Source of the DNA: Blepharisma japonicum
Lineage: Eukaryota; Ciliophora; Heterotrichea; Heterotrichida; Blepharismidae
DNA length: 64,000 bases
Direction of reading: 5' to 3'
Assembly: GCA_949751835.1 (NCBI GenBank)
Contig: CATKHK010000063.1
Location: forward strand, 186,001 to 250,000
Below the pieces are notes generated by a model. It was not told the DNA's origin. It searched no databases and was given only the letters and a program-made list of their open reading frames with translations. How positions within the stretch are numbered: the stretch's first letter is position 1; every line of letters starts with the position of its first letter. Made by a program: the position numbers and the translations under genes. This document shows positions 36,886 to 63,110 of the stretch, one piece after another.

Positions 36886-36988
36886 TATTTTTATAAAATT
36901 AGCATATATTTATTAATTTTGATATATATTTTCTAAGAACAATTATCATAATAATATTTAATTTCTTCTAAAACAATGAAGAATATTT

Positions 36989-43074: not shown

Positions 43075-44382
43075 TTAATCATAAGTATAAAAGTATGATA
43101 ATTCGGCGCTTGGACCTTCAAAATTTTGGATTTTCTTTAATTCTTTTTCTTCCAAGTTGAACTCGTAATATAAAAACTGGCTTGGATGAGAATAGACGTC
43201 ATAAGTTCCCAAGTATATTTTTTTATCACTTATAAGTCTATATGGCTGAGCAGTAAATAAGCTTCCATCAAATTTTCCAATGTTTTTCCAAATGTATTCA
43301 TTATCATATTCGCTTTCTCATATACATATCCAAGACTCAATTAAATAAACTCTTGAATTTCCTGCAATTAAAAGCTTTTCTGTGGGTCCAGCATTAAATT
43401 TAAATACTGTAAAGCTTTCAAGATTTATATCATATTCACATAGATGCTCAAACTCAAGAGCTGAAAGTATAATTCTCTGCTTAAAAGGAACTGCTGAACT
43501 CGATGTACAAAGTTGACTTGGTAAAGGGGGTAATTGGGTCCATTTATTTTTGATTAAATCAAATTTTTGATTAAAAGTTTCTTCTTTAATAAAAAAAGAG
43601 CGAGCAAAACGTGGATTAATCTTAAGAGGTCCCAGTCCACCAAACATATAAACATTTTGCTGATAATAAAATATTCCTGATCTGTGAAGATAGGTAGTAA
43701 ATGGTAAAATTCGTTTTATTTCATATGAATTTAAATCAATTATGCAAGCATAGCCAACATCTTTATCCTGATTTCCAATGCAAAACAACTCGTTGTTGGG
43801 GAGTTGGACTACACTGACTTCATCACCAGTAAGTATTTCATATAAATCAATATTGATTTTGTTTTGTTGGGACTTTTCAATGTCATACACAACAAGTTCA
43901 GTTTTATTCATTTGACTACTCATAGAATAAAGGAATTTTGAGTCTTGATAGATGTATGGAGAAAAAGACTCAGAAATCAGACCTTCTATTGTCCCTCTAA
44001 TTCTGTTAGAAAAATTAGCATACACTTCAACATATCGTAAATAAGCATTCATAAATTCATTATCTTTTTCTAATAAGCTTATGAATACTTCATCATTTTG
44101 ATAGGAGGAGCTTATATTTTTAAATTCAGCTTCCATCTCTTCTTTAAATTTTTCTAATTTCTCTATTTTTTGATTTTTATCCTCATAAAACTGAAGATTG
44201 ATCAAATTTTGGGGTTTTTTGTTTACTACATTTAATGCAGCCTCAATTGATAAGATGTGATCAGTTTGATTTTTTAATGATTCTATTGGGTTTATTTCCT
44301 GCTTGATATTCGTCGTTGTAATATCTGAATGAATAGTTCGCTCGTTGCTTCTCTTTCTTTTAGCTGTATTAATGTTTTCCAT
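43075..44382 (-). CDS. Coiled-coil + kelch array member KE
   Basis: ATG 44382 to TAA 43075-43077, 435 residues, Trp from TGA at 43318-43320 among others. The start reads MENINTAKRKRSNERT, a short basic patch (KRKRS) that KF and KD share and that could be a nuclear localisation signal. The rest follows the core layout: coiled coil with LQFYEDKNQKIEKLEKFKEE, FSPYIYQDSKFLYSMSSQMN, kelch blades to FEHLCEYDINLESF and the end block. KE and KF are the most similar pair in the array and lie in the two units of the 2.6-kb duplication, so their split is recent. KE appears whole. Confidence 0.83.
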
Positions 44383-44425
44383 TATAAAATAGAATGTAAT
44401 AAAATCTGAAATTAATTCATTTTTT
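44383..44425 (-). promoter_or_regulatory. Upstream block conserved in the kelch array (KE; also KC, KD, KF)
   Basis: Directly before the ATG of KE, KF (46980-47022), KD (41926-41965) and, less well, KC (39967-40005) the minus strand has TTAATTTCAGATTTTATT followed by CATTCTATTTTATA. Being upstream of four genes and ending at the start codon, it is likely a shared 5' leader or core promoter. For KE and KF it lies within the duplicated unit; KD and KC lie outside it. Confidence 0.5.
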
Positions 44426-45665
44426 TTTTAATATTTTAAAAATTAAGAAATTTTAGTTTTTGCATTTAAATAAGCTCAGTTTTAGTTCATAAAAAATGCC
44501 CATATAAACTTTTATACTAATTTATTTTAAACTTCCTTAATGGAGTATTTTTGACTCAGTGAAATAATCTTTTTGAAACCTTAATTTGTTGTTGATGGAT
44601 GGTTTGCATTGCCTTGGGATGTTTTGCAGTAATTAAGCGTGGAGTTTCGAGTATTATGCTTTACTTATATCCTGTATAATTGTATGAATTTATGATTCGC
44701 AATTGTAGTTAAGGAATTATATGAGTATAAAAAAAACTCACTAACTGAGGAGAAGAGTCAGAAATTAGAGCTTCTATTGCTGCTTATAATTTAAATATGG
44801 AATTTTTGAGAAAGAATACTAGCTCTCTTTTGACATAATTTGAGAGAATGAGGTTTGGCTTTATCCCATATATTTAGTAAGGATTTAAGTGTTAAAGAAT
44901 ACATAAAATTGTAGATGGTCTTAAGATAATACTTTTCACTGTAGGTTTCTTTATCTTCTGTTTGAATTATTATTGGGGCCTTTGATGAGCTTTCTGTTCG
45001 GGCTTATGCTGAACTTTCTGTTTGAATATCTATAGAATTTTCATTGGTGTTCTATCGAGATTTCTATTGGAGTTTCTGTCGTGGTTTCTGTGGATACTGT
45101 TTGAGTTTCTGATGAGGTCTCGGCTAAAATATTTGTTTAAGTTTCTTTCTGAAATTTTATGGAGATTGGCTGTGATATTGCTGGTTTCTTAGTCAAGGAT
45201 CCTTCTTTGATCATAGGAATCATGCATTATTTTTTAATTTTTTTTCAATTATTATTGGATTTTAATAATTACATAAAAAATAGTACAATAAAGACAGTAA
45301 AGTCTATTAATTCTTTTATATCCAGAAGAAAAAGCCCTTTTATATTGAATTAGTTCATAGAGGAAGTTCTTTTCATAGTGCTCACTTCATGAGATATAGG
45401 AATCTGCACAGCTGTTACTTTTCAAGCTTGTGGCTTGATCTTCTGGGAGTATATTTTACCAATTAAAAAAAATTTAGTTAGGCTTAGTCTGTCAGGATAG
45501 AAAATTATGTATTATCATTATTTTTTTAAGTGAAATTCTATGCAAATATAAGCTATTCTATATAGCAAAGACAATAATACTTTCTCATTAATAACAACTA
45601 ATTAAAAACAGATAATGCTTAAATATATATCTTAATTTAATCCAATTCTAGCAAATAAAGAGTTA
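44383..45665. other. Spacer between KE and KF
   Basis: About 1.28 kb. 44383-44730 matches 46980-47328 and 44734-45665 matches 42106-43074, the signature of the tandem duplication. At 44960-45130 (minus strand) the same decayed Thr/Ser/Glu-rich repeat is better preserved (for example ETSSETQTVSTETTTETP), with stops and shifts around it. Confidence 0.6.
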
Positions 45666-47328
45666 TTAATCATAAGTATAAAAGAATGATAATTCGACTA
45701 TTGGGCCTTCAAAATTTTGGATTTTCTTTAATTCTTTTTCTTCCAAATTGAGCTCGTAATACAAAAACTTGCTTGGATGAGAATAGATGTCATAAGTTCC
45801 CAAGTATACTTTTTTATCACTTATAAGCCTATATGACTGAGCAGTAAATAAGTTTCCATCAAATTTTCCAATGTTTTTCCAAATGTATTCGTTATCATAT
45901 TCGCTTTCTCATAAGCATATTCAAGATTCGATTAAATAGACTCTTGAGTTTCCTGCAATTAAGAGCTTTTCTGTGGGTCCAGTATAAAATTCAAATTCAG
46001 TAAAGCTGCCAAGATTTATATCATACTCACATATATGCTCAAACTCAAGTGCTGATAGTATAATTCTCTGCTTAAAAGGAACTGCTGAACTCGATGTACA
46101 AAGTTGGCTTGGCAAAGGGGGTAATCGGGTCCATTTATTTTTGATTAAATCAAATTTTCGATTAAAAGTTTCTTCTTCTATAAAAGCAGGGAAGCCATTT
46201 CCGAAAGATGGATTAATCTTAAGAGGTCCCATTCCACCAAACATATAAACATTTTGCTGATAATAAAATATTCCTGATCTGTGAAGATAGGTAGTAGATG
46301 GTAAAATTCGTTTTATTTCGTGTGAATTTAAATCAATTATGCAAGCATAGCCAATATCTTCATTCTTATTTCCAATGCAAAACAACTCGTTGTTGGGGAG
46401 TTGAACTACGCTGACTTCATCACAAGTAAGTGTTTCATGTAAATCTATATTGATTTTGTTTTGTTGAGACTTTTCTATGTCATACACAACAAGTTCAGTT
46501 TTATTCATTTGACTGCTCATAGAATAAAGGAATTTTGAGTCTTGATAGATGTATGGAGAAAAAGACTCAGAAATCAGACCTTCTATTGTCTCTCTAATTC
46601 TGTTAGAAAAATTAGCATATACTTCAACATATCGTAAATAAGCATTCATAAATTCATTATCTTTTTCTAATAAGCTTATGAATACTTCATCATTTTGATA
46701 GGAGGAGCTTATATTTTTAAATTCAGCTTCCATCTCTTCTTTAAATTTTTCTAATTTCTCTATTTTTTGATTTTTATCCTCATAAAACTGAAGATTGATC
46801 AAATTTTGGGTTTCTTTGTTTACTTCATTTAATGCAGCCTCAATTGATAAGATGTGATCAGTTTGATTTTTTAATGATTCTATTGGGTTTATTTCCTGCT
46901 TGATATTCGTTGTTTTAATATCTGAATGAATAGTTTGCTCATTACTTCTCTTTCTTTTAGCTGTCTCAACGTTTTCCATTATAAAATAGAATGTAATAAA
47001 ATCTGAAATTAATTCATTTTTATTTTTAATATTTTAAGCTTTAAGAAATTTTAGTTTTTGCATTTAAATAAACTCAGTTTTAGTTCTTAAAAATACACTT
47101 ATAAACTTTTATACTAATTTATTTTAAACTTCCTTAATGGAATATTTTTGATTCAGTTAAATAATCTTTTTGAAACCTTAATTTGTTGTTGATGGATGGT
47201 TTGCATTGCCTTGAGATGTTTTGCAGTAATTAAGTACGGAGTTTCGAGTATTATACTTTGCTTATATCCTGTATAATTGTATGAATTTATGATTCGCGAT
47301 TGCAGTTAAGGAATTATATGAGTAAATT
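44734..47328. repeat. Segmental tandem duplication, right unit (about 2.6 kb)
   Basis: It is the second copy of 42106-44733, with KF in the place of KE. Differences seen by eye are single bases and short indels in the spacer (for example a shorter A run and fewer CTAA units), and few amino-acid changes in the genes. Confidence 0.85.
45666..46979 (-). CDS. Coiled-coil + kelch array member KF
   Basis: ATG 46979 to TAA 45666-45668, 437 residues, with TGA-Trp at 45921-45923 and shortly after. It begins MENVETAKRKRSNEQT, with the same basic patch as KE. Compared with KE it differs mainly in one surface loop between blades (FGNGFPAFIEEETF) and in scattered residues; its C-terminal part is closer to KC (CEYDINLGSFTEFEFYTG), which suggests past gene conversion or a shared ancestor with KC. 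The C-terminal block is complete (FEGPIVELSFFYTYD). The gene appears whole. Confidence 0.83.
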
Positions 47329-48197
47329 AGTGCTAATTGGGAATCAAAAATAGTGCTTGCATGCGCATGAAACACTCTCAAATCTATTTATTGCATCTAA
47401 AGATTAATTTAAAAAAATTATCAAAAATGAAAAACCTCACTGTAAAATAGTTCATGATGAAAAGCTTCTAATTATCACAACATTTCCCATCATTTAAAAC
47501 TGAATTAATTATTGTAAATCAAGAAACACAACAATTATCTATTTCTAAAGAGGAAGTAAAAGTAGCAATACATCATTTATAATAAATGAAAATATCTCCT
47601 CATTAATTTTTATTATATTTATTATAATTAATGGGGACATATGATAGAATGTTGAGATAACATCGGATAATATAAACGATGAAATTATTCAATATTTTGA
47701 AGAAGATTACTGTCAAGTAAATATAGAGTATGATAAACTCAGCCCAGCATGCTAATATACTCATATTGCTAACCATGAAATCCCCCAGCCCAAATTAACT
47801 GTGGATTTTAATTTTGCCATTTTTGAGTAAATCCAGCCCTCTATGATGGCATGTAGTACATATGCTAATTAAGCACATCAAACTCCTAAGTTGGTTCCTG
47901 GTAAATCACCAGCTATATGAATGTACGATCTGAATTTTTTGATTTTTGATAAATTTTTATGTTGAGAGTGGTACCAAGATTTAAAGCTGTAAAATTAAAA
48001 TTAGAAATTAGAGATTAATTGAATTTGCTCTTAATGAAATTAAATACAAATTGTCCGAGGATGGCGCAAGATAGAGCCATCCTCGGGCAATTTGTAGATA
48101 AGCTAACAATACATAATAATTTACATTAAAAATTCCAGCTGAATTTATTAGTTTTATCTTATACATTTAATTCAATGAAATATTAAATTAAACATTA
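46980..48197. other. Spacer between KF and KG
   Basis: About 1.2 kb. 46980-47328 is the end of the right duplication unit. 47329-48197 is unique and has no supported gene; it contains the strong hairpin at 48046-48095. Confidence 0.55.
48046..48095. repeat. Near-perfect 20-bp hairpin, 10-nt loop
   Basis: The arm at 48046-48065 pairs with 48076-48095 at all 20 positions, 19 by Watson-Crick pairs and one G-T pair (T54/G87). The core GAGGATGGC is far richer in GC than the surrounding DNA. The loop is GCAAGATAGA. It could be the fold of a small RNA, a minimal palindromic element or a cruciform; it lies 103 bp past the 3' side of KG. Confidence 0.85.
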
Positions 48198-49523
48198 TTA
48201 ATCATACTCATATTCAAAATGACTCCCTACGCTGGGGCCTTTGAAACTTTTGATTTCCTTGAGCTCCTTTTCTTTTAGATTGAACTCGTAATATAAATAC
48301 TTACTAGTAGTATGATAAATTTCAAAAACTCCAATATAAACCTTTGTACTTGTTACAACTCTATACGATTGCGCAGTAAATAATCTTTTTTCAAATTTGC
48401 TAACCCTATTCCAAATATACTCATTATCATACTCACTTTCTCATAAGCTTCCTCAAGCCTCTAATAAATAAAGTCTTGAGTTTCCAGCAATCAATAACTT
48501 TTCTGTCGGGTTCTGATGTAAATCTATTTTATGGAAACTTTCTAAGTTTATGTCGTATGAATAAATAAAATTCTCACACTCAACCCCTGTAAATAGAATT
48601 TTGTGCTTGTAAGGCACTGCTGAACACGAAGTAATTCTTCTTGGAAGTTTAGGTAATGAAACTCATTTATTTGAGATTAAATCAAATCTTTTATTGGTAC
48701 GATCTTCTTTTAATTCTAAAGGAAGAGGATTACTAGAGGAGCGTATAGGGAAAATTATAGACAGCAAACCACTAATAACGTAAACGCTTTGTTGGCAATA
48801 AATAATTCCTGATCTATTAGGATACCGTATAGATGGCAAAGTTCGCTTAATTTCATATGAATTCAAATCAATTATTCAGGCATTGCAGCTGTCTCGGTTG
48901 GATTTCCCAAAACAAAATAGCTCATTATTAGGAAGCTGAACTACGCTGACATCGTCATTAGTTAGTGGCTTAGGCAGATTAATATCGATTTTCATTTGCT
49001 GAGACTTTTCTATATCATACTGAATTAGTTTTATAGGATATATGTGGCTATTGACAGAGTAAAGAATTTTGGAATCTTCATAGAAATAAGGAGAAAAAGA
49101 TTTTTCTATTGTTCTTTTTATTGTTTTTCTAAGGGCAACAGAAAATTCATTGTAGGTTTCTGTATATTTCAAATAAATATTGCTTATTTCTTCATCTGAT
49201 TTTAATAACTGTTTGAAATTTTTATCACTTTGATAAGAAGCGTTTATATTTTGAAACTCAGTGTCTAAGGTTTCTTTGAGATTTTCTAATTCTTCGATTT
49301 TAGAATCTTTATCCTCATAAAAATTAAGCTTAATTGACCTGCTTGCTATTTCATCTTCATTTCCTAGTGTTAAATAGCATGATAAGATATGCTCGATTTT
49401 TGCATTGAGCAATTCCAATACATTTGATTTGAGCTGAGTATGCGTACTTTTATATTTTATTTGATCAAATGCAATAACTTGAGTATCGATGCTATTCTTT
49501 TCAATATTTTTTAGATTTTCCAT
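48198..49523 (-). CDS. Coiled-coil + kelch array member KG
   Basis: ATG 49523 to TAA 48198-48200, 441 residues. TGA is Trp at 48876-48878, 48663-48665 and 48447-48449 or nearby, which is why the gene falls into pieces in the standard code. Signatures: LNFYEDKDSKIEELENLKET, FSPYFYEDSKILYSVNSH, VSVVQLPNNELFCFG, IIDLNSYEIKRTLPSIRYPN, GIIYCQQSVYVISG, AVPYKHKILFTG, LIAGNSRLYLLEA and the end block (WESEYDNEYIWNRVSKFE, FKGPSVGSHFEYEYD). Compared with the KC-KF core it has Gly-Gly lost in one kelch turn (VISGL in place of MFGGL). It pairs most closely with the dead copy KH. Confidence 0.8.
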
Positions 49524-49732
49524 ATTGATTACACAGCAGAACTAATTGCATTAGCAATAAAGTCGAATAATCCATCACCAATAACTTTTTATTAATTTAA
49601 AGGCTATACAACTATATATTAGAAGCTAAAAATAATAGTAGTTTTATATGGCTAATATTAAAAACTGGTATAACTTGTTGATCTCATAAAATATACTTAG
49701 TTTTAAGAAGCAATATAAATTAAACGATATCA

Positions 49733-51468
49733 ATCATACTAATACTCATAATGTTACCCCACTTCAGGACCTTTAGTTCTTTGAATTTCCTTCATTTCCT
49801 TATATTTTAAATTGAACTCGTAATATCGAAACTTGCTCCAAGAATAAATGTCAAAAACTCTTATAAAACTTTTTTTCTTGATATAACCCTATATGGTTGA
49901 GCTCTAAAAAGCCCCCTTCCAAATCTATCAATCTGCCTCCAGGTATGCTCATTGCCATATTCGCTTTCTCGTAAGCCCCCTCAAGCCTCTATTAATTTAT
50001 ATCATACTCATAAAAGCCATCCTCACATTCAAATCCTACAATAAGAATTTTTATGCTTGAATGGCACTGCTGAACATGAAGCTAATATATCAGGCACTGG
50101 AAGTAATGAAACTCGTTTATTTGAGATTAAATCAAATTATTATTGGAATAAAATTTTATTTTCCTCTTTAAATAAAAAAGGTAAACTAGCTCTCAAAGAG
50201 GCAATAGAAATTCTTATAAGCCACCATCCATCAATGATGTAAATATTGTGTAGATAATAAAAAATTCCTGATTTTTGAGGTTATGTATAGATGGTAAAGT
50301 TCGCTTAATTTCATATGAATTTAAATCAATAATCAGGTGTTGCAGCTGTCTTCATTGGAGTTCCCAAAGCAAAATAATTCATTGTTAGGAAGTTGAATTA
50401 CAATGGCTTCGTCATTAGTTAATAGCAAAGATAGATTAATATTGATTTCGTTTGCAGACACTTTTCTATGTCATACTGAATTAATTCGGTAAAGAAGTTT
50501 AGAATCTTCATATAAATAAGGAGAAAATGATTCAGCTATTAAATTTTCGATTGTGTTCTCAGAGCTACAGAAAATTGATTGTAGGTCTCTGTATATATTA
50601 AAAAAGCATTTCTAATTTCTTCGTCTGTTTGTAGTAACCCTTTAAGCTGCTGCTCACTTTTACAAGAAGCATTTATACTTTGAAACTAACAAAATAGCAT
50701 TAATGTATATCGAGAAGTCCTCTGTAAGCCTTAGGCCACTATTATCCTCCTCCAATATCGCTTCATACTTTCTTGCTAGTCCGTATACAGCATGCACTGT
50801 GTATTTTACATGCAAAGGGCCTACACTTGTTTCTGTGGTGGGAGGATTTGAGTCACAAACTACACATCAGCGTAAGCTACCTTATAAAAAATTTGAAAAA
50901 ATTTATTCTGGTCGTTTATCAACTAAGATGGAAGCTCAAAGCTGAAGATTCCAATCCTGATATCGCGCTAAAGAATAACCTAAAACGTCTAGTGAATATC
51001 ATAAGAATAGCAGGGCTTCCCTATCTAGCTCAAAGTTTCATCTCTCTACAAGAAAAAAAACTGGCTGTGAGCAAGATATGCTGTCTACCAAATTGGCAAA
51101 AATTCAGAAGATATACAACATGAGCGCATTTTTCCCATTCTCAAGAACCCTGAATATCTTAAAATTTCTGCTAGGAGAATTGAAAAAAGGGCTGATTCGA
51201 ATTCAATTTTAAATGTATTTTGAAACTCAGCATCTAAGTTTTCTTTGAGATGCTCTAATTCTTCTATTTTAGAATTTTTATCCTCATAAGCTTAATTGAT
51301 TAATTTGCATTCCCATCCTCATTTCTTAACTATAGATGATAAGATATATTCAATTTTTGCTTTAAGTGATTCAATACATTTAATTTGAGATCAATATTTG
51401 CTTCTTTAAATTCTTTTTGATTAGCCAAAATATCAGCATTCTTATCAATTTCACTGTGATTTTTCATT
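49733..51468 (-). pseudogene. Kelch array member KH, dead copy with an insertion
   Basis: On the minus strand the family sequence can be followed from ATG 51468 (MKNHSEIDKNADILANQ) to near 49733, but in several frames. Small indels are scattered, a block of about 85 bp (the LLIAGNSR region) is missing near 49998, and 531 bp of unrelated DNA sit at 50688-51218 within the coiled-coil part. It is most like KG, its right-hand neighbour's sister. The amount of damage shows it has been without function for some time. Confidence 0.85.
50688..51218. other. 531-bp GC-richer insertion in KH, flanked by a 9-bp direct repeat
   Basis: TTTGAAACT occurs at both edges (50679-50687 and 51219-51227) and only once at the same place in the intact relative KG, as expected for a target-site duplication. 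GC is about 38-43% against less than 30% nearby. Both strands have moderately long open stretches (for example plus 50773-51123), but I recognise no protein and no terminal inverted repeats. It could be a fragment of a mobile element or of a gene. Confidence 0.65.
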
Positions 51469-51568
51469 TTTACTACAATAGAAATAACTGAATTAGCAAC
51501 AAAATCTCATAATTTATAATTTTAACAAAATTGTTAAAAATCAATAATTTATCTAAAATAATCAAGTT

Positions 51569-52804
51569 CTACCCCTCAGTTTGGGCTTTAAAACTTTGAA
51601 TTTCTTTAAATTTCTTTTTTACCAAATCGAATTCAAAATATGAAAATGTTTTATCATCATAATTATTAACGCATCCAAAATAGACTTTTCTCTTATTTTC
51701 AACTCTATAAAACTGTTCATTTGGCAATCCTATATATAGCCAATCTATTTTATTTCACACATATTCATTATCAGGCTGGCTTTCCCATATGCTCATTTGA
51801 ATTTCCAATAAATAAACTCTAGAATTTCCAGTTAGAAGTAAAATTCTGGTATGCTCTATATTGAAATCAATTTCTGAAAAACCATTTAAAGCTATATCGT
51901 ACTCATATATATAGTTTTTAGACTCATTTCCTGCGATTAGGACTTTGTTTTTAAAAGGCACTGCAGAGCATGAAGTCAATAGCTCTGGGAGTGGTGATAA
52001 ACTTACTCATTTTTCCAAGATTAAATCAAATCTTTTGTTGAGAGTCCTTAGTTTAGAAAAACTTTTGAAGGGTAATCTAAAATCATCATCATGATCACAT
52101 CTTCCTCCAATAATGTAAACATTTTTCTGGTAATAAAATATTCCTGATTTGTAGTTATAGTAAATTGAAGGTAAAATTCGTTTTATTGTATATGAATTTA
52201 AATCAATAATGCATGTGATAGGGGAATTTGAACAATATTTCGCTAAGAAAAATAATTCATTGTTTGGAAGGAGGACTGTCAAGATATCACTTATTCGTGA
52301 CCCAAAGAAATCAATATTGATTTTATTTTGCTGCGATTTTTCTATATCATATTGAAAAAGTTCGCAATCACTGGCCATATTATCAAATAAAAAAAGAAAT
52401 TTAGCATCCTCGTATATATAGGGAGAGCAAGACTCAGCTTTTAGGCTTTCTATTGTTTCTCTTATTTTCCTAGAATAATCATTATAAGTTTCAATATATT
52501 TTATGTAAATATCGCGAACTTCATGTTCTGTCTGAAGTAAATTTATCAAATTTTGATCACTTTGATAAGAAATTTTTATGTTTTGAAACATAGCTTCAGA
52601 GCTTATTTTAATTGCTTCTAATTTATCTATTTCTAGATCATTGCTCTCATAAAATTTAAGTTTAATTGATTCATTTGTCTTTTGGTTTATATTTGCCAAA
52701 GCACGCTTTCTTGATAAGATGTTATCAATTTTGATTTTAAAGGACCTAAGCTCCTTTAATTTTAGTTCGGCACAAGAGTACAAATTTTTTGATTCACTGA
52801 TCAT
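51569..52804 (-). CDS. Coiled-coil + kelch array member KI
   Basis: ATG 52804 (MISESKNLYS) to TAG 51569-51571, 411 residues; an open stretch continues upstream to 52873 but relatives start at the equivalent of 52804. TGA is Trp at 52007-52009 and 51755-51757. The layout is that of the array: LKFYESNDLEIDKLEAIK, SCSPYIYEDAKFLFL, VLLPNNELFFLA, CIIDLNSYTIKRILPS, GIFYYQKNVYIIGG, AVPFKNKVLIAGN, LLLTGNSRVYLLEI and an end block with VYFGCVNNYDD and FEFDLVKKKFKEIQSF. It is a divergent, intact member at the edge of the array, facing away from the GTPase gene GA with 263 bp between the two start codons. Confidence 0.8.
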
Positions 52805-53051
52805 TTTAGTATATTTTCCAATTAATATACTATAACTTTTATTCCCATTTAAGTGAAAATAATAAATTTTCAAGTAGTTAACTCAAAAGCCTTAAATCTA
52901 TTTAAAGAATTTTTATAAAATTCTTTTAAATAAAATCGCTGCATGCAAGTAAATATGAGAGTATAAAAATATAAAATTATTTATTATAAATAAAGTGTAG
53001 AAAATTTTTCATAGACTTTAATCATTTTTTAAGATTTATGGATGCTCACTG

Positions 53052-53067: not shown

Positions 53068-55476
53068 ATGAGATCTGGAAGATTTGATGCAGCGCAAAAA
53101 GTCCTTGGGATGCTTTTTCCCGAAAATTTCAGAGATCGCTTAGAAAGCCTAAAGCAAGATATCATAGCGCAATCAGGGATTTCTGAGATAAAAATTGAGG
53201 ACTCCAAATATTTACCTCACACTTTTGAATTCTTAATAACTGGCGATACCAATAATATTATCTCCGCGAGTAGCGTTATTTTTAGCAGTTTTATCCCAGA
53301 TCCATTAAGCAAAACAAGAATGGATGTACTTATTCCTGAACAAAGTGTAGGCACAGTTATAGGCACAAAAGGATCAAATATAAGCATGATTTGCCAAAAT
53401 ACAAAAACAAAAATAGGTATTAATAAGTATTCTCCAACATCACAAGTAGGCACTATTGATGGCACTTTCGAGGCAATTCTAAAAGCAATGGAACATATAA
53501 TTGAGTTTATTTATGAAAAACCTAGAAGAGCAAGTAGCGCAGCTAGGCCTATTGGTCATACAAGGCCTGGCTCATCAGCATCAAGACAACCTTCAGTAAC
53601 AAGGCCATATTATAATTATAATAACTTTGAACACAAAGTTGAGAGGGAAACAGTTGAAGAAATAACGAAAATGATAACAGTCCCTCAAAGTAAGGTATGA
53701 TTGATTTTAGAACAAGATATGGGTGGACTTAAAAGACTGAAAGATATGTCAGAATGTAATATTACCCTACATGATTCTGAAGGCGGAGATATGAAAATCT
53801 TTCAAGTAAAAGGGATGCCTTTAAAAGTCGAGATGGCTATTGAGCTGATAAAAGCAAAGACTAACCAGCTGAAGCCGAATGAGATTGATGAAAATTCTAA
53901 AACAAGGGGTAGAGAAAGCTGGAGAAATAGAGAAAACCCTTCTAGAGAGCCAGAAGAATATGAAGAAGAAAAAAAGATCCCACTTATAGAAGATTTTACA
54001 AGGCTTAATATCGCAAGAAACCAAAAAGCTGTTTCACTAGTTATTGGACAAACAGGATCTGGAAAATCCACATTTATCAACTATCTCACTAACTTTTTCA
54101 GAAAAGGGTCTCTCAATAATAGAAAAATCGCAATCCCAACTAAAGCTTTACCACAAACAGAAAGAGATTTTAACCACACAGAAAGGCTGATAAGCTCAGA
54201 ACATTCTCAAACAAATAATTGCTGCCCATATGAGTTTACCGACCTAGAAAGCTCAAGCACTTTTATTTTTATTGATACTCCTGGTATAGGTGATACCCGA
54301 GGAGTCGAGCAAGATGACGAAAATATTCAAAAAATAATACAAGAAGTTTTAAATTATAGAGAAATCAATGCAATTATAATTGTTCAAAATGGCAGTGAAG
54401 CTAGAAATACTGCAAGTATAAAATATTGCTTGACCAAACTCAGGAACTCTCTTCCAGCACTTGTAGAAACTAATATAATACTTATCCTTACAAATTGTCC
54501 AATTACTTCAAACTTTAATGCTGATTCTTTACAAATAGTTCCAAGAACAACAATTCTGATGGACAACAATGCGCTTAATATTATTAATCTACAAAGTCTT
54601 AACAAATTCCAGCTAAATCACTTGCAATTAAACTGAAATAACTCTATGCTAAAAATCAAAGAACTAGTCGAATTTATCTGTACAATGGATACTGTAGGCA
54701 CAGGAGTATTTCAAAAAATGATTGATGAGGTAAGTATCGCAAAGCAAAATTTCCTTGACGCACAATCTCAGCTTACTAACCTTTACAATTTAAGGGAAAA
54801 GTTAGAAGAAGTGAGAGGACTAAAACAATCAGCATTAAGCGGCGCTAGAGCATATGAGAATTATATAAAAACAGAAACAGTTTGGCAGACTGAATGAATT
54901 GAGAGTCCAGATGTTCACAAAGTTTGTCCAACTCATAGTTCATTAGGTCGTTCAAACGGTATAAAAAAAATTAGAAGAAAAAAACCCACAGTTAGGAGGA
55001 CAATCTATAAGACGAAAAGAGTTTTATGCAAAAGATGCGGTCTAAAAAAAACTGCCCATTATCATACTAGAAGAGTTCCAGTGAGAGTCCAAAGATCATT
55101 GCAAACTATCCTCAATGAGGTTAGGGCAAGAACTCCAGTACAGGTCCAAAAATCAGTCCAAAGAGTAGATTATGATGCTAAGGAAAAATATGACAAGCAT
55201 ACAGCACAAGCTAATATATTAAGAATACAAGAATCAAATTGTGAAAAAGACATAAAATTAGTAGAAAAATCAATAGAGGATACGAAAATGAAAATTAGGA
55301 CTGCTGTTAGGAATTTAAGGGCAATTGCTCCAAATTATAACATCGCTGAAGAAATTGATGGAATTCTCCAAGAGGCAAGAATGCAGCTGAAAATAGATAG
55401 TGCACCAAAAGAAAGGGCTAAAACAAGGATTGTTATAAGAGTGCTTGAAGAAATCTACAATAATCTTTTAGGATAA
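53068..55476 (+). CDS. KH-domain + AIG1/GIMAP-like GTPase GA
   Basis: One frame of 802 residues crosses TGA-Trp codons at 53698-53700, 54634-54636 and 54895-54897. Residues about 20-75 look like half a KH domain; residues about 86-155 are a canonical KH (IPEQSVGTVIGTKG, GxxG at 99-102); a third, degenerate KH (about 205-270) lacks GxxG. The G domain follows: P-loop GQTGSGKS (about 327-334), DTPGIGDTRG, and a long helical tail after WNNSMLKIKELVEFI. The C-terminal Cys/His module found in the relatives (TVC...CHxxC...HYHT) is eroded to CKRCGLKKTAHYHTRR. AIG1-like GTPases of this type occur in many eukaryotes and are often linked to immunity; KH suggests binding of RNA or ssDNA. The function is inferred. 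Stop TAA. Confidence 0.75.
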
Positions 55477-55816
55477 AAAATTCAATTTCTATAACTTTTG
55501 TTTAATGATTTGTAGTTTTTTAATAAAATTTTTATGAAAATTTCCTTTATAGTAGTTTTGTTGATACTTTAATCTCAATTTCCTTTCCTGCTATAAATTT
55601 ATGCTAAAATATTGAGTATTATTGGATAATTTTATCAAATGCATTTAAATTAACAGCAGAACTGATTATATAAAAATTTCATTATATAGAGTTTTGAACC
55701 ATTTTACAGATTTATAATTTTATTATGGCTTATTGACCATAAAAAGCAGGCGGGCCTATTCCAAGCCTATAAATTACTAGGAGGAATAAGACCTTTTATT
55801 ATTATAATAATTTATT
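55477..55816. other. Spacer between GA and GB
   Basis: About 340 bp. AT-rich except for a GC-rich patch at 55749-55795 (GGCGGGCCTATTCC, ACTAGGAGGAATAAG, parts of which are inverted copies of each other). No gene is seen. Confidence 0.5.
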
Positions 55817-58285
55817 ATGAGATCTGGGAGTCTTGATGAAATGGAGTTAAAAGTCCTTGGCATGCTTTTTCCCGAATTTTTTAAAAATCGGCTAGAAAGT
55901 TTAAATCAAGAAGTTATAGCACAATCTGGAATTTCTGAAATAAGAATCGATAGGTCCAAATATTTCTCTGACGCCATTGAAGTCTTTATAACTGGTGGTA
56001 ATAATGAAATTATTTCAGCATGCAACATTATTTTTGAAAACTTTATACTAGATCCATTAAGTAAAGCGCGTATAGATATACTTATTCCCGAACAAAATGC
56101 AGGCAAAATCATAGGCTTTAAAGGGAAAAATATAACTAAGCTTTGCAGAAATACCAGAGCAAGCATAAATATTAGCAAATATTCCCCTGCATTAAGAGTA
56201 GGCAATATTGAAGGGACGCTTGAGATGATTCTTAAAGCAGTAAAACAAATATTTTATTGAATTTATGATATCCCTGAAAATTCAGGAAATCTAGATGGAT
56301 CTTTTCACTCAACACAATCTAATCCAGGAGCCCCAAAGCCTCCATCACAAAAGTCCAAGAAGAAAAATTTCGAAAAAAGGGTTGAGAGGGAAACAGCTGT
56401 AGAAATAACGAAAATGATAACAGTTCCTCAAAATATGGTAGGATGGCTTCTGGGAAGATATATGGTAGGGCTTCAGAAGCTAAAAGAAATGTCTGAATGT
56501 GATATTACACTACTTGATTCTGCAGGGGTCGATATTAATGCAGAAGCGGAAGAAATGAGAATTTTTCAAGTAAAAGGAATGCCTAAGAAGGTAGATATTG
56601 CTATTGAACTAATAAAAGCAGAGACTAACAAATTGAAGCTAAAAGCGATTGAAAGGGAGTCAAAATTAAATAGTAAAAACCAAATAAAAAATAAAGAAAA
56701 TGCATCTAGCTGGCCAGAAGAAGATGAAGGGAATCAAAGGGAGACTGAGCAAGTCAGTGAGAAAAAATGGAAAAAGAAAAATAAAAGTAAAAATAAAATT
56801 GCTAAAAAAGAGATTGAGGAAGAAGAAAAAAAGATCCCACTTATAGAAGATTTTACAAGGCTTAATATCCCAAAGAACCAAAAAGCTGTTTCGCTAGTTA
56901 TTGGACAAACAGGATCAGGAAAATCCACATTTATCAACTATCTCACTAACTTTTTCAGAAAAGGGTCTCTCGAAAATAGAAAAATCGCAATCCCAACTAA
57001 AAATTTTAAATACCAAACAGAAAGAGATTTTAATCATACAGAAAGGCTGATAAGCTCCGATCAATCCCAAACAAACAATTGCTGCCCATATAATTTTATC
57101 GACCTTGAAAGCTCAAGCACTTTCACCTTTATTGATACTCCTGGCATAGGTGATACCCGAGGTGTTGACCAAGATGACGAAAATATTCAAAAAATAGTAA
57201 AAGAGGTTGTGAATTATCCAAATATAAATGCAATTATAATTGTTCAAAATGGTAGTGAAGCTAGAAATACCGCAAGTGTTAAATACACCTTAAACAAGCT
57301 CAGGAACTCTCTTCCATCACTTGTCGAAAAAAATGTAATTCTCATCCTTACAAATTCAGCAATTTCTTCAAATTTTAATGAAAGCTCTCTCCAAATCGTC
57401 CCAAGAAAAAAAATCACTATGGACAATAATGCATTTAACGTCGAAAATTTCCAAAACCTTGATGAATATCAGAAAAGCCATTTGCAGTTGAGCTGAAATA
57501 ATTCAATGAAAAAAATCAAAGAGTTAGTCGAATTTATCTGCACAATGGGAACAGTAGGTACAAAAGTATTCAAGGAAATGTGGAACGAAATAAATATCGC
57601 AAAACAAAATTTCCATTACGCAAAATTACAGTTAGCTAACCTTTACAATTTGATGGAAAAACTAGAAGATGTAAGAGGACAAAGAGAATTATCATTAAAT
57701 GAAGCTATAGCATATCAAAATTTCAAACAAACTGAAACAGTTGAGCAGACTGAATGAACTGATACTCCATACCATAATACAGTGTGCACAAATGATGATT
57801 CATTATGCCATGAAAGATGCAGACTACATTACACCCCAAATACAAATTCCTCAATTTTCACTGGATGTGCATGCATGGGAAGTTCACCTACTTGCACTGT
57901 ATGCAATTGTGGACATAATAGCCATTATCATACTAAAAAAATTCCAAGAAAAGTCCAAAAGACAGTGGAAAATATTCTCCATAATGTTAAGAGACAGCAT
58001 GATTGACATAAAGCAAGAGCTAATCAATTACAAATAGAAGAATCTAACTGTGAAAAAGATTTAAAAAATGTTCAAGAATCTATAGAAGACACAAAAAGAA
58101 AGATTAGAAAAGCAGTTCAGAATTTGAGGAGGGTGGCTCCGAATTATAATATTGCTGACGAAATTGATGGGGTTCTCCAGCAGGCAAGAATGCAGCTGAA
58201 AATTGAAAAACTGCCAAAGCAAAGAGCTAAAACAAGAGTAGTTATAAAAGTGCTTGAAGAAATTTATAATAATCTTTTAGGGTAA
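55817..58285 (+). CDS. KH-domain + AIG1/GIMAP-like GTPase GB
   Basis: This 822-residue paralogue of GA crosses TGA-Trp codons at 56258, 57494, 57755 and 58003. Its KH core (about 86-120) reads IPEQNAGKIIGFKGKN (GxxG = GFKG), and a further KH-like part (about 200-270) reads VPQNMVGWLLGRYMVGLQ. A Lys/Glu-rich linker (about 275-345) precedes the G domain: P-loop GQTGSGKS (about 363-370), DTPGIGDTRG, IVQNGSEARNT, LILTNS. After WNNSMKKIKELVEFI and a coiled coil comes a full Cys/His module (HNTVCTNDDSLCHERC ... CACM ... CTVCNCGHNSHYHTKK) and a second coiled coil to LEEIYNNLLG. The G domains of GA and GB are nearly identical, the N-termini less so. Zinc binding and GTP hydrolysis are inferred from motifs. 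Stop TAA. Confidence 0.78.
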
Positions 58286-58965
58286 ATATTTTCGAATATG
58301 ATTAACTCGTATAAAATTTTCCTAATAAGTTTTCCATTTAACTTAAAATCGTTTAAAATTTTAATTCCTTCTATAATTTTTATTATTTTTTTATAGGCTC
58401 AAAGTAAATTATAAGTTCAACCAAGCTTTATCGTTTATAATTTTATAGGCAAGAATAAATATTATTCATTATTAGGCAGTAAAAATCCTAAAATTCAATC
58501 TAATTACAATTCCTTTTATATTTTTAATATGGCCTTATGCTATTAAGAAGAGGAGAAAATGGCTTTCTTAAGAAGAAATCTCAGAGTTTTATTATTAGAT
58601 AAAAATAAGATGATAAAGTAGATGGAGTTATTAGAAATTCAAAGTAAATGGCTAAAAGCAATTTTAATTATAACTCAGCATTAAGTTCTTTGCCAAATTC
58701 AAGATGATGCTGGCTCTGTAACAAATTCAGACACAATTCATCAAAAGTTTATATTACTGATTACATGACATTGGAACTAAACTTTAGGCATGGTTTTTGA
58801 AGATAAGTTTTATTTTCATCTATTCGCGACCCTTTAGATTCATTATGTTCTTAATAGAAAGTTACTATAATTCTGAATATTTAAAACTTTATAATTGAAT
58901 TATGACCTTTTTTGAATTAAATTATCATATAATTCCTTTCATTTTAATTCTTCTATAATTTTTAA
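58286..58965. other. Spacer between GB and the kelch-like gene
   Basis: About 680 bp of AT-rich DNA without a supported gene. Its last 26 bases (58940-58965) match the leader of GC (60685-60710). Confidence 0.5.
58940..58965 (+). promoter_or_regulatory. 5' leader shared by the kelch-like gene and GC
   Basis: CATTTTA, then TTCTATAATTTTTAA, directly precedes the ATGG of both genes (here and at 60685-60710). The genes are not homologous in their coding parts, so the shared leader suggests common regulation or a duplicated promoter. Confidence 0.45.
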
Positions 58966-60336
58966 ATGGGATGTTTTGCAAGCAAATCAAAAAAAAAAAC
59001 AACAGAGCTCAAACCAAAGCCTAAAAAGCTTGTAGAATTTTATTACTTAGATAGAAAATCAATGAAAATCATTCACCATGACGCTAGCGGTATGTTTCAA
59101 ACTTTCAGAATTTGCAAAGAGGCCAATTTTTATACTGACTCAGCAGTTGGCATTATATCTAAAACACATATTATCATGGCTGGAGGCTCAAATAAGAATA
59201 GATACAGTAGAATGATATATGATGTGGACCTTGCTGCATCAGATTTCACAGCCCTGAAAAAATTACCAATCGCATCTAGATGAGGCTACATAATAAAACA
59301 TAGAAATATGGTTTATTTTATTGGTGGGATTACTAAATCTAATAAGGTAAAAAAGTCTGCTCCATTGATGGTTTTAAACTTAGAAAATTTGAAATGGAAG
59401 TTTCTAGTTAATGGCAATGGAAATCAAAATAATGATTTAGATCCTAGTTTCCCTATTGATAATTTGTGAATGCCTGGAGCATTTTTATGGAACAATAAAA
59501 TTTACATTGTCGGAGGCTATAAGTCTAAGGGGAATGGAAAAACTGAGCCAAATGAGGATGTTTACAGCTTGAGTTTAGAGGATAACTCTTTGAGAAAAGA
59601 AAAGTTTATTTTATCTATAGAAGGGGTACAGCCTCTCTGCAGTGTTAAAGATGATGAAGTCACTATTATAAGTCGATACGACCCAGAAAACAGAAAACCA
59701 AGTTTTCAGTGTTACTTGGTGAAAATGATAGAAAACGCACCAATGATAAAGAAATTAAGTCCACTTTGTTTAGAGCTTACTGAGTTTTACCCTGCATTTC
59801 ATGCTGAAAATGGTACTGTATATTTTTCTTACCCTTATTTTATATTAAAAAAATACGATTTATCTTCATGACAAACTTTCATGTTTGAGGAAATCATTGT
59901 AGCCAGATCGTTAAATCAAGCAAAAATTAATAGAATGGAAAATCAAATGTCTTATCTAGAATCAACAGGCCATACAAAAATATTTTCTGAATGAGATGAC
60001 CATCGGGATTCCCAATGGATAAGTTGTAAGTGGCATCCTAATAAAAGTATGGCAACTTTGTCTATATCTTTGGTTGAAATCGATTGCAAGGAATTTAATA
60101 AATTTAAAAAAAGAAAAAAGCAAAAGCAAAAAATAAGACAAGAAATTAACAATTTATTTAAAGAAAGAGCACCAGAGGCTAAGGAAGATTCAAGTCATAG
60201 CAGCTCAGATTCAGAGGAAAGTGGAAGTGAAAGTGGAAGTGGAAGTGAAAGTGAAAGTGGAAGTGGAAGTGGAAGTGGAAGTGGAAGTGAAGATGAAAGT
60301 AAACTCGATTGGTCAGCTATTTCCTTAGAAATTTAG
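58966..60336 (+). CDS. Membrane-anchored kelch-like protein with Ser/Gly/Glu tail
   Basis: The 456-residue product reads TGA as Trp at 59281, 59467, 59869 and 59992. It begins MGCFASKSKKK, a strong signal for N-myristoylation and palmitoylation with a basic stretch, so it is probably at a membrane. Kelch-like blades fill about residues 20-300 (IIMAGGSNKNRYS, MVYFIGGI, KIYIVGGYKSKGNGK). A basic helical part (KKRKKQKQKIRQEIN) is followed by a tail made of SG/SE repeats encoded by a GGAAGT hexamer array, then SKLDWSAISLEI. It differs from the KA-KI array: no coiled-coil start and no common end block. It sits between GB and GC and shares its leader with GC, suggesting it works with the GTPases. 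Confidence 0.72.
60215..60300 (+). repeat. GGAAGT/GAAAGT hexamer array in coding sequence
   Basis: About 13 near-perfect six-base units encode alternating Ser and Gly/Glu at the C-terminus of the kelch-like gene. Such arrays change length by slippage without losing frame. Confidence 0.85.
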
Positions 60337-60710
60337 ATTTATTAAAATAAAAATCATCTAACATGATTCATTTAAAGTTTTTTCAATAAATGGAATTTTT
60401 TTGCATAAACTTCATGATTTAAATGATAATAAATATCTAGAAATTAGCTGTAAATTCTTAAGTTTACACACTTTGGATTCGTATAAAGCCCAAAGGTTTA
60501 TTTGTTGCAATACTTATTAGTATTATTATTATTATTATCATTTTAACATTTTAACTCAAATTTATATTTTTCCATCAATGCTCATTTATAATTTCACTAG
60601 CTTTTGCAATGCTAAAACACTACCTTGAAGCTTATTAAGCACTTAAATACTTTAAAATGATGTCAATATTTAGATTTAGCCATCCATTTTATTCTTTCTA
60701 TAATTTTTAA
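60337..60710. other. Spacer between the kelch-like gene and GC
   Basis: About 370 bp, AT-rich, with an ATT run near 60520-60540 and the shared leader at 60685-60710. No gene is seen. Confidence 0.5.
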
Positions 60711-63110
60711 ATGGAGCCTTGGCCTGATCCTAAATTTGCTTATATGCAAACTTGTTCAAAAGATCAAATACTTGTTAACAATTATACCGGAACAAGTGAT
60801 GGCAATGAAACACGAACTCCAGCTGATACTTCCTACCCTAAATTTAATACTCCGGGCATGTTTCAATCGCAAGAGTTTGGCTTTTTTAACCAACCACAAT
60901 TTTTTCAAAACCCAGCCAATGAATACATAAGAAGACCGAACACTACAAAATATTCAGATTTAAATGATGGCTTTAATAACCAACCACAATTTTATAAATA
61001 CCAAGGCAATGAAGATTGAGAATCAAAAACACTGAGGACTGAAACAAGATATCAAAATTTAAATTATGAGAAAAAAGGAATGAAAGTTGCAGAATATTCA
61101 TCATCCTCCTCTCCTGTGTCTGAGGAGTCTAAAAATAGACACGGATCTGATAAAAGGCATCATAGTAAAAGGCATCATAACAAGAAATCAGAAAGATTGC
61201 AAGAAGACTCTCGTAGATTTGAGGATGTTAATGAAAGCCCAAAAAAACCTTATATAAGTCAGAAACGAAAAAAATCACCCCAATTCCCTTGTGAGTATCA
61301 AAATAATGGTCAGGAAGGTGTAAGAGTTGATCATGCTGGCAGGAGGCCCAAATATAATAAGAGAAATAAGTCTGATTCTTCAAGCTCTTCAAGATCCAGT
61401 TCAAGTGATCATAAAAAGCGAAAACATGAGCATAAGAGAAAGCATCATCACCATAAACATCATGATTCATCTTCAAAAAAAAAAATGAAAGAAATGGAAA
61501 AAATAATTGCACTGCTTGGAGCAAAACTTTTGGACGATAAAGAAGTTCCCAAAAAACCTAAAAATAAAAAGAATCCTGAGCCAGAAATATTTCCGTATTT
61601 TCCTGGAGATTTAAGGCCAGCGGATAAATTTGATGAAGAAAGACGGAGACTATCATTAGAAGAACAAAAAGACCACCTGCAGCCTGCCAGCAACAAAAAG
61701 CTCAATATTCCTCAGTTTCAAAGTGTAGTAGCCTTAGTTATTGGAGAAACAGGCTCAGGAAAGTCCACATTTATTAATGCACTTACTAATTTTTTCAAAG
61801 ACGGAAGTTTTGAAAATAAAAAATATGCCATAGGAATTAGTGATTATGGACAAACTGAGTCTGAATTTAAGCAAATTAAAGATGGAGCAAACCAAGGAGT
61901 CAGCCAAACACAAGATTGCTGTGGATATGAATTTACAGATTCTCAAAGTGCTAGTACTTTTACATTTATCGATACCCCTGGAGTAAGCGACACGAGAGGT
62001 GTAGATTATGATGATAAAAACTTAAAAAAAATTCTTGGGCAAATCAAAGAGTATGATGAAATCAATGCGATATTAATAGTCCAAAATGGAAGTCAAGCCA
62101 GATTGACACCAAATCTAACAAACGCACTTAATAGAATTTTAGGTATTCTTCCAAATGAAGTTAGTGACAATATAGTTTTAGTTCTTACAAATTCTCCTTT
62201 TAATACAAACTTTCCTGTTAATAGTCTTGAAATACGACCAAAGAAAGTATTTTTGATAGATAATTCAAGCTTTAAAAAACCTGGAGAATTTGATGATTTA
62301 AATGGTCTCAGAGACTCCTGAAACAAATCTATGGCGAGAATTAAAGAAATAGCAGAATTCATTAGCACAATGGGCTCTTTTAATGCAAAGTGCTTCAATG
62401 AGGTGGAAAAAAGAGTTGACGAAGCGAAACAAATCTTGCATGAAGCTAAAACAAAACTCTTTAACCTATATGATCTAAAGCAACAAATTGAAGAAATTAA
62501 AATGAATAAAGAATTAAAATTTGCTGATGCCCAAACTTATAAAGATTTTATGAAAACTAAAAAAATAGATCAGATAGAATGAGAAGATGTAGCTTACCAT
62601 AATACTGTTTGTGGCAATGATAGCTCTTTATGCCATGAACATTGCAGCCTAGAATTTACCAAAGATAAAAATGGATCAGTTTTTTCTAAATGTGCATGTA
62701 TGGGATCTGGTCTAAAATGCAAAGTTTGCGGATGTGGGGCTGATAGTCACTACCATACGAAGAAAATACCTACAAAAACGGAAAAACTCGTTGACGAAGT
62801 ATTACAAGATGTAAAGGATAAGTTCACCTCACTTAATGCTAAGGCAGAAGAATTAGGAGCTCAAGAAGAAGGACTTGAAGGTGATATCAAAAAGGTGGAA
62901 ATGTCTATAAACAAAGCAAAAAGTAAATTAAAGGCTGCTATCCTACAGGTAAAGAAAGTTGCTCCTCGCTATAATATATCTGGGGAAATTGATAATTCCA
63001 TCAAAGTTTTAGAATATGATCTGAAAAACACTGCAGACCCTAAGAAGAGAAAGTCAATTGCAGATTCCATTCGTACTCTTAGAGAATTTTACGAGAGTCT
63101 TAAATTTTAA
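60711..63110 (+). CDS. AIG1/GIMAP-like GTPase GC with Ser/His/Lys-rich N-terminus
   Basis: The 799-residue product crosses TGA-Trp codons at 61017, 62319 and 62580. The N-terminal 280 residues are disordered: a part with NQPQFF/NQPQFY repeats, then Ser-rich and His/Lys-rich runs (HHSKRHHNKKSER; HKRKHHHHKHHDSS) similar to nuclear-speckle targeting sequences. There is no KH domain. The G domain has P-loop GETGSGKS (about 345-352), DTPGVSDTRG, IVQNGSQARLT and LVLTNSPF. Then come WNKSMARIKEIAEFI, a coiled coil, the complete Cys/His module (TVCGNDSSLCHEHC ... CACM ... CKVCGCGADSHYHTKK) and a final coiled coil. It is clearly related to GA and GB through the C-terminal 510 residues, so the N-terminus was exchanged. 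Stop TAA. Confidence 0.77.

What the first reader, a model, noticed from the sequence alone, without database searches (positions are those of the whole stretch)
53068..63110. KH domains fused to AIG1/GIMAP-like GTPases: a candidate nucleic-acid-responsive GTPase system
GA and GB combine canonical type-I KH motifs (GxxG at 99-102 of GA) with an AIG1-like GTPase (GQTGSGKS, DTPGIGDTRG), a coiled coil and a C-terminal Cys/His module. I know AIG1-like GTPases from immune contexts in plants and animals and similar proteins from protists and fungi, but not this KH fusion. GC keeps the GTPase part but has a Ser/His/Lys-rich, speckle-like N-terminus, so the GTPase appears to be matched with different 'sensor' ends. 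A role in sensing RNA or DNA is a hypothesis.
Basis: partly seen in the sequence, partly recalled or inferred. Interest (0 to 1): 0.8.

Follow-up and report, generated by a model that had tools for sequence, protein, structure and literature searches.

The report
KH domains joined to GIMAP-like GTPases
Two neighbouring genes of a ciliate-like genome join RNA-binding KH domains to a GTPase predicted to be shaped like GIMAP/Toc GTPases, and sister genes carry the same GTPase with different front ends; the fusion looks real, but what it does is unknown.

Summary
The observation largely holds. GA (53068-55476) and GB (55817-58285) are intact frames (TGA=Trp) matching Pfam KH_1 twice each (E 2.4e-13, 3.1e-16) and a P-loop GTPase; GC (60711-63110) has the GTPase without KH. 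Pfam AIG1 stays below its cut-off in these proteins, but the predicted GTPase fold is nearest GIMAP7, Toc34 and GIMAP2. Corrections: only the middle KH keeps GxxG, and GA's Cys/His module is lost, replaced by a basic stretch. The model puts this module at the tip of a helical hairpin. Six GTPase paralogs were found with four kinds of N-terminus, plus one gene with the hairpin but no GTPase; KH was found only in GA and GB. KHb and KHc resemble KH units of a resident SR-rich KH protein. Most likely: a GTP-switched, dimerising scaffold tethered to single-stranded RNA; sensing or immunity is untested. No such fusion appeared in the paper, prokaryote and virus searches made; eukaryote genomes could not be searched. 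New variant of a known kind.

The parts
53068..55476 (+). GA: KHa-KHb-KHc + GIMAP-like GTPase + helical hairpin with degenerate, basic tip; 802 aa, 3 in-frame TGA
53095..53301 (+). GA KHa, probable degenerate KH without GxxG (aa 10-78)
   Evidence: model b-a-b-b-a, block pLDDT 62-76 over aa 11-70; Pfam KH_1 reports two stretches, best at 86-145, so this one has no Pfam support that I could see
53317..53523 (+). GA KHb, canonical KH with VIGTKG (aa 84-152)
   Evidence: KH_1 best stretch 86-145; phmmer to IGF2BP3, IGF2BP1 and Nova-1 KH, E 2.5e-6 to 1.6e-5; not resolved in the model, low pLDDT
53659..53877 (+). GA KHc, KH fold without GxxG (aa 198-270)
   Evidence: model b-a-a-b-b-a, block pLDDT 65-84 over aa 201-270; single-domain Foldseek hits to FUBP1, hnRNP K, PCBP2, Nova KH (aligned ranges not printed)
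54022..54702 (+). GA GTPase domain (G1 GQTGSGKS, SQTNNC, DTPG, QNGSEARNT, LTNC)
54919..55113 (+). GA hairpin tip: Cys/His ligands lost, net charge +21 against +3 in GB and GC
55817..58285 (+). GB: KHa-KHb-KHc + GTPase + hairpin with intact Cys/His tip; 822 aa, 4 in-frame TGA
56069..56275 (+). GB KHb, canonical KH with IIGFKG
   Evidence: KH_1 best stretch 87-145
56402..56641 (+). GB KHc, GxxG altered to GRYM; nearest the last KH of a resident multi-KH protein
56879..57559 (+). GB GTPase domain
   Evidence: fold nearest GIMAP7, Toc34, GIMAP2
57563..57733 (+). GB hairpin, outgoing long helix (aa 583-639)
   Evidence: model helix 249-305
57737..57964 (+). GB Cys/His module between two strands at the hairpin tip (CHERC, CACM, CTVCNC, HYH)
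   Evidence: block pLDDT 52-73 in this part of the model; metal binding not tested
57980..58135 (+). GB hairpin, return helix (aa 722-773)
   Evidence: model helix 388-439
60711..63110 (+). GC: low-complexity N-terminus + GTPase + hairpin with intact Cys/His tip; 799 aa, no KH match
60711..61640 (+). GC N-terminus: N/T/Q/P/F/Y-rich 1-130, then S/K/H/R-rich 131-270
61719..62405 (+). GC GTPase domain
   Evidence: aligned

Best explanation
GA and GB are RNA-tethered members of a septin/GIMAP/Toc-like GTPase family. Shown: the domains are in one chain; two tandem copies exist; substitution rates differ by domain in the way expected of coding sequence under constraint. Predicted: the GTPase has a GIMAP-like fold, and a long antiparallel helical hairpin with a Cys/His tip follows it. 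Inferred: GTP-bound monomers pair through the G face, with the invariant Arg of QNGSxxRxT acting as the arginine finger; KHb, with its GxxG loop, binds a few bases of single-stranded RNA (or ssDNA), while KHa and KHc add framework or weak contacts; the hairpin tip links dimers or partners. The result would be a GTP-controlled scaffold on RNA. In the paralogs other N-termini (Ser/His/Lys-rich, Asn/Pro/Tyr-rich) would bring the same switch to other places. In GA the lost Cys/His tip has become strongly basic and may add a second nucleic-acid contact.
For: KH_1 above cut-off with GxxG; Foldseek KH matches for the N-terminus; GIMAP7 5.3e-7, then Toc34 and GIMAP2, as first fold matches of the GTPase model; best viral fold match a Pithovirus 'AIG1 family protein' at 2.3e-7; G1, SQTxxC, DTPG and QNGSxxRxT in 6 of 6 paralogs; the R-finger is described for TOC34/TOC159 and AIG1/GIMAP (PMC11238149, passage); GIMAP dimerisation and proposed scaffolds (PMC8201404, passages); GA/GB dN/dS 0.27 KHa, 0.57 KHb, 0.21 KHc, 0.23 GTPase against 0.80 and 1.04 in linkers; KHb and KHc nearest to two KH units of a resident SR-rich multi-KH protein.
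Against: No binding, GTPase or oligomer data. KHc and KHa lack GxxG. KHb is the least constrained of the three KH (0.57), has net charge 0 in GA (+6 in GB; KHa -4 and -4, KHc +1 and -2), and was not resolved in the model (two-row alignment, mean pLDDT 51.6). G4 is LTN[SC], without the Asp of the usual motif (recalled), so guanine specificity is unsure. Pfam AIG1 is below cut-off; in the own genome the only hit over it is an Era-like gene (by eye), and the same search rings in 12 of 14 control prokaryotes (8 over cut-off), so that model is not specific here. A profile of the 6 GTPase domains found no GIMAP by sequence among the 60 PDB hits shown of 71.
Confidence: 0.5

Rival explanations
1. A nucleic-acid sensor of cell defence: KH binds foreign RNA/DNA and triggers GTPase assembly, the varied N-termini being different sensors.
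For: AIG1/GIMAP genes are often tandem, expanded and joined to other domains such as DD-CARD in the snail B. glabrata (19 architectures; PMC7053062, passages); here too the genes are tandem with differing N-termini.
Against: No effector domain was recognised, no expression or infection data. Only 6 GTPase paralogs were found (a lower bound). KHb/KHc look like a module from a host KH protein, which suits self RNA.
Confidence: 0.15
2. The KH part is a passenger: shuffled in by duplication at an unstable tandem locus, now used for protein contacts or drifting.
For: GxxG lost in KHc and absent in KHa; KHb dN/dS 0.57 and no net positive charge in GA; paralogs GC and GD do without KH; GA's tip region has dN/dS 1.26.
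Against: By dN/dS, KHc and KHa are about as constrained as the GTPase (0.21, 0.27 against 0.23), and GxxG is kept in KHb of both copies.
Confidence: 0.25
3. An Era/EngA-type ribosome-assembly GTPase with a KH domain.
For: Era also joins a MMR_HSR1-type GTPase with KH (recalled); MMR_HSR1 is the best GTPase model here.
Against: Here KH lies N-terminal and KHc is type I by order of elements; Era has a C-terminal type II KH (recalled). Fold is nearest GIMAP/Toc34. A separate Era-like gene exists at C4 (L043, my reading).
Confidence: 0.04
4. Assembly or gene-model artefact joining two genes.
For: Six-frame reading only; no transcript available.
Against: Two tandem copies, 57% identical from end to end, share the junction, with frame and domain-wise constraint kept.
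Confidence: 0.03

Closest known systems
GIMAP/AIG1 and Toc34/Toc159 ('paraseptin') GTPases
   Same: Nearest folds; G1, SQTxxC, DTPG, and an invariant Arg between G3 and G4; helical C-terminal part; tandem genes
   Different: AIG1 below Pfam cut-off; G4 lacks Asp; long hairpin with Cys/His tip; N-terminal KH in two members
IGF2BP/PCBP/hnRNP K/Nova/FUBP type-I KH proteins
   Same: KH fold, GxxG in KHb; best PDB sequence hits IGF2BP3, IGF2BP1 and Nova-1; fold hits to IGF2BP tandems, FUBP1, hnRNP K, PCBP2, Nova
   Different: Those are KH arrays without a GTPase (recalled); here one of three KH keeps GxxG
Snail (Biomphalaria) AIG proteins with extra domains
   Same: AIG1-type GTPase joined to varied other domains, tandem arrays (PMC7053062, passages)
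   Different: The other domains named are DD-CARD, DD-Fas, Hint, ARM-type fold and kinase; 'KH domain' and 'RNA-binding' have 0 occurrences in the main text
Era/EngA GTPases
   Same: GTPase and KH in one chain (recalled)
   Different: KH type II and C-terminal to the GTPase there (recalled); another fold class is nearest here

Membership tests
Type I KH domain | Match to PF00013 above cut-off | tested here: met
   GA 50 bits, GB 59.3 bits, cut-off 21.5, two stretches each
Type I KH domain | Order b-a-a-b-b-a | tested here: met
   KHc in the GA model, block pLDDT 65-84; KHb not resolved in that model, KHa shows b-a-b-b-a
Type I KH domain | GxxG loop | tested here: met
   KHb only: GTKG, GFKG. 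Not met for KHa and KHc
AIG1/GIMAP | Pfam AIG1 above cut-off | tested here: not met
   Whole proteins: GA 14.3, GC 21.5, GD 15.7; GB GTPase domain alone 25.4; cut-off 27. All 6 domains match at E<=0.1, best E 9e-7, but bits are shown for GB's only. So not filed as AIG1 proper
AIG1/GIMAP | GIMAP-like GTPase fold | tested here: met
   First hits GIMAP7, Toc34, GIMAP2, Toc34; TM 0.49-0.58 by target in the top 12 rows, identity 12-15%; model pLDDT 77
AIG1/GIMAP | G1, G3 and an arginine-bearing stretch between G3 and G4 | tested here: met
   In 6 of 6 paralogs; equivalence with the GIMAP7 finger is recalled, not aligned here
AIG1/GIMAP | G4 with Asp (TRxD/TKxD, recalled) | tested here: not met
   LTN[SC] in 6 of 6
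AIG1/GIMAP | GTP-dependent dimerisation | not testable with these tools
   needs protein
Septin | Pfam Septin above cut-off | tested here: not met
   GB GTPase domain 19.8 against 26.2
Era | KH type II, C-terminal to the GTPase (recalled) | tested here: not met
   KH lies before the GTPase; order of elements type I in KHc

The most novel reading that the evidence does not exclude
A modular ciliate system in which one GIMAP-like GTPase with a Cys/His-tipped hairpin is paired with interchangeable N-terminal address tags (a KH array captured from a host SR-KH protein, Ser/His/Lys-rich and Asn/Pro/Tyr-rich tails), giving GTP-switched scaffolds on different RNP bodies, with GA having traded its Cys/His tip for a basic nucleic-acid-binding tip.
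Probability: 0.25. Interest if true: 0.75.

Novelty: new variant of a known kind. Interest (0 to 1): 0.5.

Why it matters
GIMAP-like GTPases are tied to immunity and cell survival in animals and plants, but what they respond to is poorly known. A natural fusion to an RNA-binding module, beside sister genes with other front ends, gives a direct test of whether such a GTPase can be switched or placed by RNA, and shows in one locus how the family changes its targeting end.

Tried and rejected
Relatives outside this genome: phages by tblastn with GB, no match; viral contigs twice, 2 and 150 candidate stretches, none confirmed; genome contigs twice, 50 and 595 candidate stretches, none confirmed. 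Two asks with alignment A3 gave an error for lack of conserved stretches. The plasmid, E. coli and metagenome collections were not searched. Eukaryote genomes are not held, so 'only in heterotrichs' is untested.

Papers: KH domain+GIMAP+AIG1, 0 papers; KH domain+AIG1, 1 paper, whose two AIG1 passages are gene lists; KH domain+GIMAP, 8 papers, passages read in 2 of the 8, neither a fusion, the other 6 seen only in the listing; a six-term search gave none. AIG1+ciliate gave 7 papers and GIMAP+protist+GTPase 16, seen as listings apart from passages of PMC11238149 and PMC7053062. Absence in print rests on these searches only. A search for zinc hook+coiled coil+GTPase gave 2 papers, seen only as listing.

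Subtelomeric family: many GTPase hits lie near contig ends, but in the 9 contig ends printed I saw no telomere repeat, and two pairs of contigs show the same end sequence, so I take the ends as assembly breaks at repeats; this was not tested further.

Era-type and fusion-artefact readings were disfavoured as stated. A local frameshift as cause of GA's lost Cys/His module was looked for by reading the other two frames there: no module seen. The VIA-align library was not available.
Full report
What was checked. The window lies at C63:186001-250000 of a 45.2-Mb, 224-contig genome. TGA reads as Trp in the long frames, and two multi-KH genes hold 15-base GT..AG stretches with an in-frame stop. Both traits are described for Blepharisma stoltei (15-16 bp introns, UGA as Trp, 41 Mbp; PMC9942806, passages). 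I infer a Blepharisma-like heterotrich; the species is not shown.

The genes. GA 53068-55476, GB 55817-58285 and GC 60711-63110 are open without introns. GA and GB are 57% identical over their length. Pfam gives KH_1 (two stretches each; 50 and 59.3 bits) and MMR_HSR1 (33.9 and 32.9 bits); GC gives MMR_HSR1 (30.2) and no KH. The best PDB sequence matches of GA are KH domains of IGF2BP3, IGF2BP1 and Nova-1.

KH part. The model of GA 1-288 (two-row alignment, mean pLDDT 51.6, pTM 0.33) shows a b-a-a-b-b-a unit at 199-266 and a b-a-b-b-a unit at 11-75; the middle KH, strongest by sequence, is not resolved. Foldseek gave 43 PDB matches at E<=0.001; of the 50 rows shown 49 are KH proteins, and many single-domain rows have TM 0.7-0.94 by target length, though the tandem rows fit badly (rmsd 14 and more) and the model as a whole is of low confidence. 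So there are probably three KH units: KHa (degenerate), KHb (GxxG kept in both copies), KHc (fold kept, GxxG lost in both).

Origin of the KH part. A genome-wide search with the GB KH region found, besides GB and GA, two loci, at E 0.0013 and 0.0014 (C49, C6); by my reading both encode SR-rich proteins with five KH units. Unit against unit, KHb fits their first GxxG-bearing KH best (hhalign probability 88.9%, next best 15.3%) and KHc their last KH (96.8%, next best 83.5%); KHa fits none (3.1% at most). Capture from such a host gene is the simplest reading, not proven.

GTPase and hairpin. GB 335-822 with 8 rows gave a better model (pLDDT 77, pTM 0.64): a GTPase core, a helix at 216-242, a 57-residue helix, a strand, the Cys/His module, a strand, a 52-residue helix and two shorter helices. 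The Cys/His module thus sits at the tip of a helical hairpin; its own part of the model is weaker (block pLDDT 52-73). PDB matches start with GIMAP7 (5.3e-7), Toc34, GIMAP2, Toc34; 11 of the top 12 rows are GIMAP or Toc34 and the twelfth is Toc33, with 237-266 aligned columns, TM 0.49-0.58 by target. This is about the length of the GTPase; longer rows further down (dynamin-like proteins, atlastin, RNF112) fit poorly. Ras and EF-Tu follow at E about 1e-4. The best viral match is an AIG1 family protein of Pithovirus LCPAC304. By sequence a profile of 6 domains found no GIMAP among the 60 PDB hits shown of 71. In 6 of 6 domains G1, SQTxxC, DTPG and QNGSxxRxT are kept and G4 is LTN[SC]. Arginine fingers are stated for TOC34/TOC159 and AIG1/GIMAP in PMC11238149 (passage); that the Arg here is that finger is my inference. 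Pfam AIG1 is a poor judge here: searched by family it rings in 12 of 14 control prokaryotes (8 over cut-off), and in this genome its only hit over cut-off is an Era-like gene by eye.

Paralogs. A search with GB found 22 matches, a lower bound. Eleven are of this family: GB; GA in three pieces; GC; GD at C63:252923 on, with an N/P/Y-rich N-terminus and an in-frame TAA inside the Cys/His module; two copies with about 40 residues before G1 (C102:144769, C63:294359), both interrupted inside the Cys/His module; two C-terminal pieces near the end of C63 (293613 and 296314); and C1:6263, which has no GTPase but a Cys-rich N-terminus (B-box-like by eye; no Pfam match) followed by 257 residues 71% identical to GC's hairpin. 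The other eleven matches belong to another, giant family. The tree joins GA+GB (83/85), GC+GD (86/88) and C102+C63 (100/100), with GC on a long branch; the first two supports are moderate.

Selection. GA/GB dN/dS (Nei-Gojobori, my script, no significance test): whole 0.38; KHa 0.27, KHb 0.57, KHc 0.21, GTPase 0.23, first helix part 0.48, return part 0.18; linkers 0.80 and 1.04; tip region 1.26. KHa, KHc and GTPase look constrained, KHb less so. The tip region is free or driven: GA has lost its Cys ligands and has net charge +21 there against +3 in GB and GC. Against RNA binding, KHb has net charge 0 in GA (+6 in GB), KHa -4 in both, KHc +1 and -2.

Mechanism. See Best explanation. Shown: domains, copies, constraint. 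Predicted: folds. Inferred: RNA tethering by KHb, GTP-dependent pairing with an arginine finger, the tip as a contact point. Immunity is only an analogy: in the snail, AIG genes are often tandem and show 19 architectures (PMC7053062, passages), and AIG-type GTPases are named as effector domains of prokaryotic conflict systems (PMC7159879, passage).

Novelty. No paper with this fusion was found by the searches named in Tried and rejected, and no relative in the phage, viral and prokaryote sets searched; eukaryotes were not searchable. By recall, many uncharacterised AIG1-type proteins with Cys/His-rich C-termini exist in protists, fungi and animals. I therefore rate it a new variant of a known kind, interest 0.5.

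Noticed in passing
L035 2-10000 (-), end of contig C140; similar GTPase-bearing frames in L032-L034, L036-L042: Giant frame (3333 aa, open at both ends) with an F-actin capping protein beta domain (PF01115, 7.9e-73, aa 962-1202), a P-loop GTPase stretch (aa 1396-1519; MMR_HSR1 21.8 bits, just under its cut-off 21.9) and a SecA_DEAD match at its cut-off (aa 3204-3260); weak GTPase similarity to GB and further copies on C14, C25, C98, C169, C208, in which the other domains were not looked for.
   Followed up: partly
window 35632-52891 (-): Row of eight frames of 368-441 aa that look like tandem paralogs, kelch-like by eye; the one at 51569 has no Pfam match at 0.01, the others were not scanned. 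It lies directly beside the GTPase genes.
   Followed up: partly
window 58966-60336 (+): Kelch gene between GB and GC (Kelch_6 28.9 bits, cut-off 25.3) with an MGCF start (a possible lipid anchor, recalled) and a Ser/Glu/Gly-rich tail; shares an exact 19-base sequence over its ATG with GC (58951 and 60696; 2 matches against 0.42 expected with up to 3 mismatches, 5 of 100 shuffles with as many).
   Followed up: partly
L029 6886-7338 (-); L030 8150-10000: The two short GTPase paralogs are broken at the same place of the Cys/His module, at a TA: about 450 bases in C63; in C102 an insert with frames that look like a transposase (not scanned), the rest of the gene not being found before the contig end. 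They recall the TA-bound eliminated sequences and the Bogo/BogoMITE elements of Blepharisma (PMC9942856, passages), so germline DNA may be in this assembly.
   Followed up: partly
L031 6260-7852 (-): Protein with a Cys-rich N-terminus and the C-terminal hairpin of GC (71% identity over 257 aa) but no GTPase match.
   Followed up: partly
L025 5631-5633: In-frame TAA in GD inside its Cys/His module, with the frame still similar downstream: a pseudogene, a truncated protein or a sequence error.
   Followed up: no
L047 385-1740; L048 1489-2877: Two SR-rich multi-KH genes, each with a 15-base GT..AG stretch ending in an in-frame TAG, as expected of a heterotrich micro-intron.
   Followed up: yes
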